Part shown: piece by piece, positions 3,639 to 8,890 of the stretch | Layout: each line of letters starts with the position of its first letter | Position numbering within the stretch: the stretch's first letter is position 1 | Source of the DNA: Sphingomonadaceae bacterium | GTDB lineage: Bacteria; Pseudomonadota; Alphaproteobacteria; Sphingomonadales; Sphingomonadaceae | Assembly: GCA_025359445.1 (NCBI GenBank) | Contig: JANYGB010000053.1 | Location: 25,440 to 89,439, forward strand | Reading direction: 5' to 3' | Length of the DNA stretch: 64,000 nt | Program-made: the position numbers and the translations under genes | Notes under the pieces: generated by a model | What the model saw: only the letters and a program-made list of their open reading frames with translations | Databases searched by the model: none | Told to the model about the DNA's origin: nothing

Positions 3639-3750
3639 ACTTATTTTACTCCACGCTGGGTGCCGCAAATAGGTCGCAAAGCAAGACTTTGACGCCACCT
3701 TTCGAGCGTAACGGCTTGTAGCTCCTCTCGGAGTATGCTCAACTTACTCA

Positions 3751-6192
3751 ATGAAAAACGAGCGCGCGTCTTGGTCTGAGTTAAGCATAGAGGACCTCTT
3801 TTTTGCTTTTCGCAAAGCGAAGGTTGATTGCTATTTTGAAACCTCGATTAGAGTCGCCGAGAAATTTGTTCGGTACGAAGAGAGGTTAGGAGAGCGCTTA
3901 GCGACTCTGCTGCAAAGATTGCAGGCTGGCGATGTCAAAGAGGTCTTCTCAGAAGGTCTTGGCGAACCCGCGATTTTTCCAAAGAAAGTAAGTCTGGGAC
4001 GAGCCGATTCCAGCAAATCATTGCATGCTTTTTTCTCAGATTCGAAACGCGCATTCAAGAAGGAACGAAGTCGCGGTCTTATTCCCGAGTTCCGAATGAT
4101 TGGGGATTTTGCAGTAGAGGTTCACATAATTTCTGCGTTGTGGGTCAATTTAATTGGACACAAATTTGACGCTCAACTTGGCGATAGTGCAGTCGCATCT
4201 CGGCTACGGCGCTATAGGAGGGATTCCGTTGGAAGCGGGATTGGTGATTACCATCTAGAAGCGATTGGCTCCTTCGAACCTTATTTCGAGCCATATCGAA
4301 AATGGAGAGACGGCGGCCTTGACGCGATCAAAGTCAATTTGGAAAAGGGCCAGGGGGTTGTTGCACTGACTCTTGATGTTGGAAACTTTTATCACAGCAT
4401 CGATCCGAGCTTTGCTGTGCACCCAGCATTTCACGAATACGCTGGCATCAAACTTGCCTCATTTGACATTGAATTTACTCAAAACATAACGGACGCCTTA
4501 AATGCGTGGTCTAAGAAATGCGCTGATAAGGTCGCAATTTTTGGCTGCGAACGCGAAACATTCGGGGGTCTTCCGATCGGTCTTTCTGTAGTTAGAGTGC
4601 TTTCAAACATAATTTTACTTTATCTTGATCGAGAATTGGAGAATTCTGTATTCCCAATTTACTACGCTAGGTATGTTGATGACGTTTTTCTTGTCATTCG
4701 AGACAATGAAGCATTCGAAAGTCAAGATGATATCTGGCAAATGCTGCAGCTTCATATCCCGTCGCTCAAGCGCGAGGACGATGGAAATGTGGCGTTGCAG
4801 CTGCCTAATTGGGCTGGAAATACTCGATTGTTTTTTCAGGCCGAAAAGCAGAAGTGTTTCTTTTTGAGTGGGGAGTCTGGCCTCGACCTACTCGACAACA
4901 TTGCTTCGCAAATCCGGGAGGTCTCAAGCGAGCGTCGACTGATGCCCCTTCCGGAGCAGCTCGACCAGACTCAGTCCGCAAGGGCTCTAACAGCCACTGA
5001 TACTGCTGATGAAGCGGATAGTTTGAGGAGAGCGGACGGCCTGACTCTCCGGCGTCTTGGCTGGTCAGTACTCCTTCGATCGGTGGAAGTGTTGGCGCGC
5101 GATTTGTGCCCAAAAGATTGGGTAGATGAGCGAAACCGATTTTACGAGTTTGCTCATGATCACGTAATTCGGCCTGACAAGATATTAGAGCAGATTGACC
5201 GCTTGCCGCGACTTTTTTCCATCGCGGTTTCACTCGGCGATTGGAAGGCTGCGTTAAGGATTTGGCGAGAGACAATATCGGCTATTTACGCACTGCAAGA
5301 TGCTACGGCCTTTAGTGTAATGAGGATCAACGGCCACACTTGCCAAAGCAACCCAGAAAAGGTGTGGGACGAGACCCGCTTGCAAGTGCAACGATTCTTT
5401 CGTAAGGCGCTTATTCGAGCCATTGGCATCGAGCAAGGTAAGGCCAAGGCATTTTCGGTGTTGGTAGGAGATTTGGATTTCGAGACTTCGGAGCTTTTTT
5501 CCCTCGCACAATCGGCTAGAGAAACCGATTGGGGGAGGATCCCCTACAAAGAGCATTTGCGATTGTATGCCGACCGGCACGCTCCCATTCGGGTGGACGA
5601 GGAAATTCTTTATGGTCGGTATGGCCATGAGACTGAACTTCGTCAGTTCTTGACGCGTTCAGTTAATCGGGTGGACCCGCAATCCGGTGCAAGGGTAAGG
5701 CATGAACTGGGCGAAACGCCGTACGTCTCCCTACTACCGTTTCTCTTTCCCACTAGAGCCTATACACCAGAGGAAATCGCGCTCTATTTGCCGTCGGAAT
5801 GCGTCTCTGACGAGCCCATTGCAGCAGCTCACGCCTGGTCCGAGTACACTCGAGCGGTACGCGGTGTCTGGGTCCGCAGCGAGCTCGCAGATGAAATGAC
5901 CCTGCCCAATCCGAGTGCCTCAAGAGATATTGACGACGGCGACAGCAATACGCCTCAATCACCTGGGCAAGGTGCACGCACAATTGAACCCAAAGATCCG
6001 CCGAAGCATATCGTGATTGACGACGGCGAAAGCCACTTCCCGGTTCGTGTAGGAATTACTAGCTTCGCCACGTCAGACGCTACTTGGTCACTGGGTGCCA
6101 CGGGCAATCCGGACCTGTCGCCCAATCGTTACAAGTCGATTGCGAAAATCGTAAATCATGCCCTGAAGGAGGAAAAAAGCCAGATTATCTAA
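3751..6192 (+). CDS. Reverse transcriptase (RNA-directed DNA polymerase), N-terminal part of an RT-nitrilase fusion, DRT1/UG-like
   Basis: VVALTLDVGNFYHSIDPSF (domain A), GLPIGLSVVRVLSNIILLYLD, YARYVDDVFLV (YVDD at 4672-4683); C-terminus VRVGITSFATSDATW...NRYKSIAKIVNHALKEEK looks like the start of a nitrilase domain that continues in the -1 frame. Confidence 0.85.
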   Translation: MKNERASWSELSIEDLFFAFRKAKVDCYFETSIRVAEKFVRYEERLGERLATLLQRLQAGDVKEVFSEGLGEPAIFPKKVSLGRADSSKSLHAFFSDSKRAFKKERSRGLIPEFRMIGDFAVEVHIISALWVNLIGHKFDAQLGDSAVASRLRRYRRDSVGSGIGDYHLEAIGSFEPYFEPYRKWRDGGLDAIKVNLEKGQGVVALTLDVGNFYHSIDPSFAVHPAFHEYAGIKLASFDIEFTQNITDALNAWSKKCADKVAIFGCERETFGGLPIGLSVVRVLSNIILLYLDRELENSVFPIYYARYVDDVFLVIRDNEAFESQDDIWQMLQLHIPSLKREDDGNVALQLPNWAGNTRLFFQAEKQKCFFLSGESGLDLLDNIASQIREVSSERRLMPLPEQLDQTQSARALTATDTADEADSLRRADGLTLRRLGWSVLLRSVEVLARDLCPKDWVDERNRFYEFAHDHVIRPDKILEQIDRLPRLFSIAVSLGDWKAALRIWRETISAIYALQDATAFSVMRINGHTCQSNPEKVWDETRLQVQRFFRKALIRAIGIEQGKAKAFSVLVGDLDFETSELFSLAQSARETDWGRIPYKEHLRLYADRHAPIRVDEEILYGRYGHETELRQFLTRSVNRVDPQSGARVRHELGETPYVSLLPFLFPTRAYTPEEIALYLPSECVSDEPIAAAHAWSEYTRAVRGVWVRSELADEMTLPNPSASRDIDDGDSNTPQSPGQGARTIEPKDPPKHIVIDDGESHFPVRVGITSFATSDATWSLGATGNPDLSPNRYKSIAKIVNHALKEEKSQII

Positions 6193-6896
6193 TATTTCCT
6201 GAACTATCTATCCCGGAGCGTTGGGTTAGTACGATATCGAGTAAGTTACGAGAGGGGCGTATTAGTCTAATTGCAGGACTAGATTATCGTCGTTACTCAG
6301 GAAAAAAAATTGATAGTTCAGCCGTGATGGTTCTGAACGATCGTAGACTCGGATATTCGACCTCATTGCAAATTAGGCAAAGAAAGTCTCAGCCAGCGCC
6401 GGGGGAGGAAAAGAATCTCCTAAAAAGCCATGGCCACGATTGGCGAAGCCCCGCGACCGAACAAAAGCCTGTATATGTGCACAACGGATTTCATTTTTCA
6501 GTACTCGTTTGTAGTGAACTCCAGAACATTGAATATCGATCAAAATTGCAAGGGTATGTGGACTGTCTCTTTGTAATTTCATGGAATAAAGATCTTGAAA
6601 CCTTTTCAGCGCTTGTTGACTCTGCAAGCCTTGATGTCCATTCTTATGTTGCTCTATCTAATAATTTGCGCTATGGAGACAGTCGAGTTCGGAGTCCTGC
6701 GAAAGATTCGTTTAAGCGCGATGTTTGTCGTGTGCGGGGCGGCGTTAACAATCAGCTCGTTGTTGTCGAGATTGACCCTCGCATCCTGAGAGCTCAGCAA
6801 AGCCGGGCCAAGCGGTGGCCTGACGATGGTGACGCATACAAGCCAGCTCCTGAAGGTTTTGCCATTTCGCCCAGCAGATTCACCACTCCCAGTTGA
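6177..6896 (+). CDS. Carbon-nitrogen hydrolase (nitrilase)-like domain, in -1 frame relative to the upstream RT
   Basis: KPDYLIFPELSIPERWVSTISSKLREGRISLIAGLDYR (FPEL Glu), FHFSVLVCSEL (candidate Cys at 6510-6512), ends KPAPEGFAISPSR; no in-frame ATG near the domain start (ORF-track start 6084 is TTG). Confidence 0.75.
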   Translation, partial: KPDYLIFPELSIPERWVSTISSKLREGRISLIAGLDYRRYSGKKIDSSAVMVLNDRRLGYSTSLQIRQRKSQPAPGEEKNLLKSHGHDWRSPATEQKPVYVHNGFHFSVLVCSELQNIEYRSKLQGYVDCLFVISWNKDLETFSALVDSASLDVHSYVALSNNLRYGDSRVRSPAKDSFKRDVCRVRGGVNNQLVVVEIDPRILRAQQSRAKRWPDDGDAYKPAPEGFAISPSRFTTPS

Positions 6897-6969
6897 ATGG
6901 CGCATTGGGATTGCTGTGGGATGGTGGGATTACGGTGACAGGTGCGAAAACCCCCAAACCTTCCTAACC

Positions 6970-7362
6970 TTAAATCCCCGGCCATTCCTCCAGCTTCAAC
7001 CTATCGATCCGCCGGAAGTCCTTGCCGTTGCGGGTGATGAGCGTCGCGTCGCGGGTGATGGCCTGCGCGGCGATCAGGCGATCGAGGGTGGTGCGTCTGT
7101 CATAACCGAGGTTGTAGACGATTTTGCCGTAAGTGAGAATGTCGGCATCGGTGAACATCTGAGTGGCGATGGTTTGCAGGAAGCGGACGAGCAATCGCCG
7201 GCGCAGCGGTGCTTGGCTCGGATCGGCGTTGACGCCGTTTTCGAGTTCGATCCGCGTGATCATCGAGATCACAGGAAGGTCCGGCAGTTCGTCGATCAGC
7301 CGCAAGGTTGCCGGGTGTGCGTCGCGCAGCGCTATAGCGACGTCGGTGTCGATAAAAATCAT
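6970..7362 (-). CDS. vapC: PIN domain toxin, VapC family
   Basis: MIFIDTDVAIALRD...VISMITRIELENGV...DADILTYGKIVYNLGYDRRTTLDRLIAAQAI. Confidence 0.85.
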   Translation of the reverse strand: MIFIDTDVAIALRDAHPATLRLIDELPDLPVISMITRIELENGVNADPSQAPLRRRLLVRFLQTIATQMFTDADILTYGKIVYNLGYDRRTTLDRLIAAQAITRDATLITRNGKDFRRIDRLKLEEWPGI

Positions 7363-7391
7363 GCGGCGAAAGTCATGCTGGTGCGGCGCGA

Positions 7392-7658
7392 TCAGAACAG
7401 TTTCTTGCGATCGGGCCAGTCGAACGGATCGCGCTTTTGCACTCCTCCTGGCGGCGCGCCGATTGCTGCCATGTCTGCCGTCAACTTACGCAACACGCGG
7501 CGAACATCAGCACTGTCGCGCGTGAGCTTGATCGTCACCGTGTCGCCGGTCTTGTTCATCTCAAGTTCCGCTCCCGCTGGAATGGCGAATCCCTTGGGCA
7601 GCCGCACCGCGACGCTGTTGCCGGACTTGAAGGTTTTGGTGTGGACCGGCTTTGTCAT
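7392..7658 (-). CDS. vapB: AbrB/MazE-type antitoxin, VapB family
   Basis: MTKPVHTKTFKSGNSVAVRLPKGFAIPAGAELEMNKTGDTVTI (SpoVT/AbrB fold); ATG at 7658; directly upstream of vapC. Confidence 0.8.
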   Translation of the reverse strand: MTKPVHTKTFKSGNSVAVRLPKGFAIPAGAELEMNKTGDTVTIKLTRDSADVRRVLRKLTADMAAIGAPPGGVQKRDPFDWPDRKKLF

Positions 7659-7661
7659 GCT

Positions 7662-7684
7662 GCCGTATATACGGGATATACGGC
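7662..7684. promoter_or_regulatory. Palindromic operator candidate upstream of vapB
   Basis: GCCGTATAT-ACGGG-ATATACGGC: perfect 9-bp inverted repeat with 5-nt spacer, 3 bp upstream of the vapB ATG. Confidence 0.6.
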
Positions 7685-7686
7685 GA

Positions 7687-7911
7687 TCAGGCAAGTCGCC
7701 CCGCATCCACATGCTTGATCCAATCCCGCACCACCCATTCCCCCATGCTCGCCGCATCGTGCAGGCCCGGCTCGACCACCGGGCGCATTTCGGGGAAGGC
7801 CATGCGGCCGGGTCTCGGCCTGGCGGGGGGCAGGCCGATGTCGGGGAAGCCGCGTTTGAGGAAGTCGGGCAGTTCTCCTTCGACAGGCTCAGGTTGAACG
7901 GGCTTTTTCAT
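7687..7911 (-). CDS. Small hypothetical protein (MKKPVQPEPVEGELPDFLKRGFPDIGLPP...)
   Basis: ATG at 7911; ATGA overlap with the stop of the upstream CDS; proximal part encoded by a REP-like sequence. Confidence 0.55.
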   Translation of the reverse strand: MKKPVQPEPVEGELPDFLKRGFPDIGLPPARPRPGRMAFPEMRPVVEPGLHDAASMGEWVVRDWIKHVDAGRLA

Positions 7912-8747
7912 GAGTCTTGGTCCTTGTCGTCGGTGAAGTCGCTGAGTTCGATGCGGCGGGTGACGTTGGCGCCGTCCCACTCGTCGCCTGCCTGCGTGCC
8001 GGGTTCGTCGCCGCCTTCGTCGCCCGGCTGGTCGATCAGCGCCGCGCTGGCCGGCTCGTTCCAGGCGGTGCGGCCGGCCTCCTGGTCGGCATCGGCGGCG
8101 GCGGCGTAGGCTTCGTACAGCGCGCGGGTGGCGCTGGTCATATCTTCCAGCCAGCCTTCCTGCAGCCGGTCGAGCTGGGCGTCGAGCGCGTCGTTGTTTT
8201 CGTCGGCTTCGGCGGCCTCTTCGCGGGCGCGCTCTTCGTCCCACTCTTTGCGCCATTGCTTTTTGAACCGGCTGAGGCGGTTTGCGTCTTGCGGATCGTG
8301 GAGCGAGCCGCGCCGCGCGGTGACGCGGCTATCCGCGGCGAAGCGAGTGGGCGCGCGGTTTTTGAGCATGAACATCAGCAGGCGGTCGTTGTGGACGATC
8401 CGGCTGCCGATCAGCTTGCCGTAGGAATAGACCGGGACTTCGGTGCCGTAGAGCGCGCGCTCCATCGCGATGTCCTCGAGTTGCTGGACGCCAAGCGCGA
8501 GCGCGGCTTCCCACGCGGTGCGGAAGGTGGTGGCTTCAGTGTGGCGGCGCAGCAGGTAGGCGCCCTCGGGGGTCATGTTGACGCGGTGAGCGGCGGCCTT
8601 GACGCTGCCGGTGTCGGCCAGCGCCTCGATGAAGCCCAGCTGGCGTTCGGGGGTCCAGCCGTCGTGGCGCTGGTAGTGGCGCGGGACCGGGGTGAAGGCG
8701 GGGAGCGGGGCTTTTTTGCCGCGCGGGCGGGCTTTGTCGATGGTCAT
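7908..8747 (-). CDS. HTH / terminase small subunit-like hypothetical protein
   Basis: MTIDKARPRGKK...GWTPERQLGFIEALADTGSVKAAAHRVNMTPEGAYLLRRH; start chosen at 8747. Confidence 0.6.
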   Translation of the reverse strand: MTIDKARPRGKKAPLPAFTPVPRHYQRHDGWTPERQLGFIEALADTGSVKAAAHRVNMTPEGAYLLRRHTEATTFRTAWEAALALGVQQLEDIAMERALYGTEVPVYSYGKLIGSRIVHNDRLLMFMLKNRAPTRFAADSRVTARRGSLHDPQDANRLSRFKKQWRKEWDEERAREEAAEADENNDALDAQLDRLQEGWLEDMTSATRALYEAYAAAADADQEAGRTAWNEPASAALIDQPGDEGGDEPGTQAGDEWDGANVTRRIELSDFTDDKDQDS

Positions 8748-8890
8748 GGTGGGCTCCGGGGCATGGGCGCGGGGAAGTGGGGGCGCGGGAGCATTGCGCA
8801 GGTGAGGGCCTGTAGGAAAGTGTTTTGGCGGTTGAGCTTCTACTCCGCAGGTTGACAATGCGGGGCAGGGCGCGCTTCACTGCGGCTTCC

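What the first reader, a model, noticed from the sequence alone, without database searches (positions are those of the whole stretch)
6160..6200. RT and nitrilase domains split by a -1 frame change at an A6 tract preceded by AAGGAGG
Seen: frame 1 reads GAG GAA AAA AGC CAG ATT ATC TAA (stop 6190-6192). The nitrilase continues in the -1 frame from AAG CCA GAT TAT CTA ATA TTT CCT GAA (6177 onward). The nitrilase N-terminal strand and helix (VRVGITSFATSDATW...YKSIAKIVNHALKEE) are still in frame 1, so the break is inside the domain. The junction AAGGAGG-AAAAAA-GCC (6166-6180) combines a perfect Shine-Dalgarno-like motif with a homopolymer. One extra A gives continuous ...ALKEEKKPDYLIFPEL.... No ATG lies near the domain start, so independent translation is unlikely. 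Options: -1 ribosomal frameshifting on AAA, RNA polymerase slippage, an A6/A7 phase-variable switch controlling a toxic defence gene, an assembly error, or recent inactivation. The rest of the nitrilase frame is open to its natural end, which argues against old decay. Caution: zero-frame codons GAA AAA AGC are not the canonical A AAA AAG phasing, A6 is short for transcriptional slippage, and the SD-to-slip spacing is shorter than in dnaX.
Basis: partly seen in the sequence, partly recalled or inferred. Interest (0 to 1): 0.82.

Follow-up and report, generated by a model that had tools for sequence, protein, structure and literature searches.

The report
Frame-broken RT-nitrilase phage-defence gene
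A bacterial anti-phage gene of a known family (reverse transcriptase fused to a nitrilase) carries a one-base frame break in this genome that none of 80 related genes compared at that spot shares, so it is most likely a recently broken gene or a consensus error and not a programmed frameshift or switch.

Summary
An 813-aa ORF (3751-6192) stops within the nitrilase domain, and the rest of that domain continues in the -1 frame (6177-6893) after AAGGAGG-AAAAAA. Both halves match one PADLOC family, RT_UG5-nitrilase, end to end (E 5.5e-175 and 2.6e-93). It is a class-3 UG/Abi RT related to DRT1 (PDB 9YFD).

The programmed readings fail. In 80 homologous loci that span this point, the frame is continuous, the segment keeps nearly constant length, and neither an A tract nor an SD-like motif is conserved. 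The only in-phase slip motif, A_AAA, is the weakest of the active -1 tetramers in E. coli. The SD-like motif is too close to the tract, the downstream RNA folds worse than shuffled sequence, and E. coli RNA polymerase shows no slippage below eight As. No usable start codon lies between the break and the catalytic Glu.

Both halves evolve at normal relative rates and all catalytic residues are kept. The break is therefore either very recent or absent from the real genome. Best reading: a recent one-base loss-of-function indel in a horizontally acquired defence gene. Main rival: a consensus error, which needs reads to exclude. Ordinary; low interest.

The parts
3751..6192 (+). Frame-1 ORF: UG5-type reverse transcriptase (YVDD), helical region and the first part of the nitrilase domain, 813 aa
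   Evidence: RT_UG5-nitrilase, profile 12-684/907, E 5.5e-175
6166..6178 (+). AAGGAGG + A6 at the frame break; lesion placed only to about 6160-6180
6177..6896 (+). Rest of the nitrilase domain in the -1 frame, stop 6894-6896; E 6201, K 6384, C 6510, E 6516 kept
   Evidence: (profile 681-900/907, E 2.6e-93)
6302..6309 (+). A8 tract in the same gene, in frame, intact
3642..6922 (.). Stretch absent from the nearest relatives; the broken gene fills nearly all of it

Best explanation
This is an ordinary single-gene RT-nitrilase anti-phage system (UG5 type, class-3 UG/Abi RT) that has recently suffered a one-base indel within about 6160-6180. As sequenced it makes an RT with an incomplete nitrilase that lacks every catalytic residue. 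By analogy with DRT1, where a nitrilase active-site mutant gives no immunity, it should be inactive in defence. Shown here: family, frame break, uniqueness of the break, kept residues, unaccelerated evolution of both halves, and acquisition at a variable site. Inferred: that the base change is real in the organism, and the loss of function. Loss may have been neutral or favoured because the effector is a potential burden (inference).
For: Both halves match one profile with adjoining profile coordinates. In all 80 homologous loci that cover the junction the frame is continuous, and 70 homologs are full-length single ORFs without stops. Three other homologs are also broken, each elsewhere (L062 at YVDD, L066 near aa 154-172, L088 in the early nitrilase domain), so lone breaks occur in about 4% of the family. 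Divergence of the nitrilase relative to the RT in this gene is 0.767, inside the 0.716-0.826 range of its 12 nearest relatives, and 41 of 43 highly conserved nitrilase positions are kept. Few other frame breaks are seen in about 141 kb of this genome's coding DNA compared with homologs, so the assembly is not generally error-ridden. DRT1 C1116A abolishes immunity (PMC13275509), and C1116 aligns with the Cys at 6510-6512. PMC3711429 classes unclustered frame transitions as indel mutations or sequencing errors.
Against: No reads and no second isolate are available, so a consensus error is not excluded. The intact downstream frame and normal relative rates are also what an error, or a still-expressed gene, would show.
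Confidence: 0.6

Rival explanations
1. The base is missing only in the consensus (sequencing or assembly error at a short A tract); the organism has an intact gene.
For: No sign of decay anywhere in the gene; the break touches a homopolymer; PMC3711429 expects homology-confirmed singletons to be sequencing errors rather than genuine indels; the assembly is in 71 contigs, some as short as 2.4 kb.
Against: A6 is short; the gene has seven A/T runs of six or more, A8 included, and only this one sits at a break. At most one or two unexplained frame-break candidates in about 141 kb compared.
Confidence: 0.3
2. Reversible on/off switch by tract-length change, shielding the cell from a costly effector.
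For: The break is at a homopolymer and removes only the effector's catalytic part; another homolog is broken by an 11-bp tandem repeat at the RT active site.
Against: Neither tract nor position is conserved: only 2 of 80 homologs have A6 in the compared 23-codon segment, both in frame. A6 is as common in the window as expected. The longer A8 in the same gene is not the broken one.
Confidence: 0.06
3. Programmed -1 ribosomal frameshifting or RNA polymerase slippage makes some full-length protein.
For: A_AAA in phase at 6174-6177; -1 slippage restores exactly the homolog length; an SD-like motif lies upstream.
Against: No homolog needs it. Without stimulators such tetramers barely shift (mean 0.147% against 0.112% background), and even with the IS3 pseudoknot A_AAA ranks last of the six active ones (PMC4066793). 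Stimulatory SDs lie 6-17 nt before the motif's second base (same paper); here the gap is about 2-4 nt. The downstream RNA is less structured than shuffles, z +2.49. E. coli RNA polymerase showed no activity on runs below 8 As (PMC6260861). These rules come from E. coli, not this genus.
Confidence: 0.04

Closest known systems
UG5-nitrilase reverse transcriptase (PADLOC PDLC03780; class-3 UG/Abi RT; probably the group called DRT5L in PMC13275509, my reading)
   Same: RT domain with YVDD, C-terminal nitrilase, collinear over the full profile; up to 50% identity to intact single-ORF homologs in many phyla
   Different: Frame broken inside the nitrilase, so no single polypeptide as sequenced
DRT1 / UG1 (PDB 9YFD, PMC13275509)
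   Same: RT-nitrilase architecture; catalytic Cys aligns
   Different: Much weaker profile match (Drt1a E 3e-10 against 5.5e-175); the paper states that the DRT1 priming serine is not conserved in other class-3 DRTs
dnaX and IS-type programmed -1 frameshifting
   Same: A-rich tract and an SD-like motif in a coding region
   Different: No slippery heptamer, wrong SD spacing, no downstream structure, no conservation

Membership tests
UG5-nitrilase RT (class-3 UG/Abi, DRT) | Profile match over RT and nitrilase | tested here: met
   both halves, adjoining profile coordinates
UG5-nitrilase RT (class-3 UG/Abi, DRT) | RT catalytic YxDD | tested here: met
   YVDD invariant in the alignment
UG5-nitrilase RT (class-3 UG/Abi, DRT) | Nitrilase fold and catalytic E, K, C | tested here: met
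   residues kept in the -1 frame; fold matches nitrilase-superfamily amidases, E 8e-10
UG5-nitrilase RT (class-3 UG/Abi, DRT) | One continuous polypeptide | tested here: not met
   frame break; 70 full-length homologs are continuous. Filed as a broken member by descent, not as a working system.
UG5-nitrilase RT (class-3 UG/Abi, DRT) | Protein-primed DNA synthesis and phage defence | not testable with these tools
   needs expression and plaque assays
Programmed -1 ribosomal frameshifting | Efficient slippery motif (X_XXZ_ZZN or A_AAG) | tested here: not met
   only A_AAA, weakest of the active tetramers
Programmed -1 ribosomal frameshifting | Stimulators: SD 6-17 nt upstream, downstream structure | tested here: not met
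Programmed -1 ribosomal frameshifting | Conserved in homologs | tested here: not met
   0 of 80
Transcriptional slippage | A run long enough for bacterial RNA polymerase | tested here: not met
   usually nine; none seen below eight As for E. coli RNA polymerase
Phase-variable gene | Tract-length variation among copies of the gene in one species | not testable with these tools
   no second isolate or reads; single copy in the genome

The most novel reading that the evidence does not exclude
A lineage-specific recoding or A6/A7 switch throttles synthesis of the nitrilase effector, so that most of the product is RT with a dead effector and only a trace is full length.
Probability: 0.04. Interest if true: 0.65.

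Novelty: new member of a known kind. Interest (0 to 1): 0.14.

Why it matters
Little by itself: it shows that a homopolymer beside an SD-like motif is not evidence of recoding once homologs are aligned. A side result is that about 4% of UG5-nitrilase homologs found here carry lone, unrelated frame breaks, which fits frequent loss of costly defence genes (or sequencing errors in those genomes).

Tried and rejected
Internal start for the nitrilase: between TTG 6084 and GTG 6324 the -1 frame has no ATG/GTG/TTG; 6324 lies past the catalytic Glu, and 6084 lies before the break, where the -1 frame does not encode the domain. Two-gene UG5-small plus separate nitrilase arrangement: rejected, because the break is inside the nitrilase and there is no start. 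Second intact copy in the genome: none. Same gene in phage or viral collections, or DNA relatives on plasmids: none. Close homolog in 150 relatives: only one weak partial match. Decay signal by conserved columns: only two changes in the nitrilase part, E957D and R973L, not informative. Most flagged frame breaks elsewhere in the genome appeared to be gene ends or overlapping ORFs; one (L173 near 3143) was left undecided. 18-nt direct repeat at 5929/6016: in frame and not linked to the break.

Full report
Observation. The sequence reads as described. The frame-1 ORF 3751-6192 (813 aa) stops at 6190-6192, and the -1 frame is open from 6177 to a stop at 6894-6896. AAGGAGG is at 6166-6172 and A6 at 6173-6178. 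The combined string is unique in the window, but its parts occur about as often as chance predicts, and AAG GAG GAA encodes Lys-Glu-Glu.

Identity. PADLOC's RT_UG5-nitrilase profile matches the first ORF at profile positions 12-684 (E 5.5e-175) and the -1 frame at 681-900 (E 2.6e-93). The gene is a class-3 UG/Abi reverse transcriptase. The nitrilase profile finds DRT1 (PDB 9YFD, E 6.4e-12) with the catalytic Cys aligned. A model of the -1 segment (pLDDT 87.9) matches nitrilase-superfamily amidases. All presumed catalytic residues lie after the break.

Homologs. Plasmid searches gave intact E. coli and Sinorhizobium copies. A genome scan gave 80 loci across many phyla. Of these 84 loci, 80 cover the junction; all are in one continuous frame there, and nearly all keep the same 23-residue length. 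A6 occurs in only two of them, in frame; an SD-like string occurs in three. Seventy are full-length ORFs without stops. Three are broken elsewhere: L062 by repeats of an 11-bp unit at YVDD, L066 within aa 154-172, L088 in the early nitrilase domain. A shared programmed event is therefore excluded; a lineage-private one is not, but has no positive support.

Mechanistic tests. For -1 ribosomal frameshifting the in-phase motif is the tetramer A_AAA. Without stimulators such tetramers barely shift, and with a strong pseudoknot A_AAA is the weakest of the six active ones; SDs stimulate at 6-17 nt (PMC4066793), whereas here the gap is about 2-4 nt. The downstream 80 nt fold worse than all 200 shuffles. 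Transcriptional slippage by E. coli RNA polymerase was not detected below eight As (PMC6260861), and selection against A/T runs is typically evident at nine (PMC1088944). There is no internal start between the break and the catalytic Glu.

Age of the break. The ratio of nitrilase to RT divergence for this gene (0.767) lies within the range of its 12 nearest relatives (0.716-0.826). Conserved positions are 41/43 kept after the break and 54/56 before. So the segment after the break has not drifted: the break is very recent, or is not in the organism's DNA.

Setting. The gene fills 3642-6922, a stretch missing from the nearest relatives. G599 (about 88-90% identical flanks) carries other sequence, including a RadC-like ORF (my reading of its translation), at the same flank beyond lepA; in G023 and G600 the left flank joins directly to the sequence at 8837. 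The gene has 49% G+C against 62% for the window. This is a typical variable site with horizontally acquired cargo (inference).

Assembly quality. About 141 kb of this genome's coding DNA compared with homologs gave six further candidates; most appear to be gene ends or overlapping ORFs, and at most one or two remain open. This makes a random consensus indel in this gene unlikely a priori, but the same is true of a real mutation, so the two cannot be separated without reads.

Conclusion. The likeliest reading is a recently broken member of a known defence family (0.6), then a consensus error (0.3). A switch or recoding is improbable (about 0.1 together). PMC3711429 classes lone frame transitions in the same way.

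Noticed in passing
L062:7916-7956 (Shewanella sp. AM-377-N06): UG5-nitrilase homolog broken exactly at the RT active site by extra copies of the 11-bp unit TATGTTGATGA, which encodes YVDDM; the intact sequence would already hold about 1.5 units, so the active-site codons look slip-prone. Could be a real switch, a mutation, or an amplification or assembly artefact.
   Followed up: partly
L088:9190-9235 (Thiotrichaceae MAG): Another homolog has its frame break in the early nitrilase domain, at a different site and not at a homopolymer.
   Followed up: partly
window 3642-6922 and 3642-8837: Variable insertion site beside lepA: DRT gene here, RadC-like cargo in G599, empty in G023 and G600.
   Followed up: partly
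window 6970-7655 (-): PIN-domain toxin and MazE/VapB-like antitoxin pair (VapBC-like) next to the DRT gene; the PIN gene is also present in G599.
   Followed up: no
L034:3969-5658: The E. coli plasmid homolog lies next to an AbiEi/AbiEii pair.
   Followed up: no
window 5929-5946 and 6016-6033: 18-nt in-frame direct repeat (94%) in the linker before the nitrilase, where this protein is longer than its E. coli and Sinorhizobium homologs.
   Followed up: no
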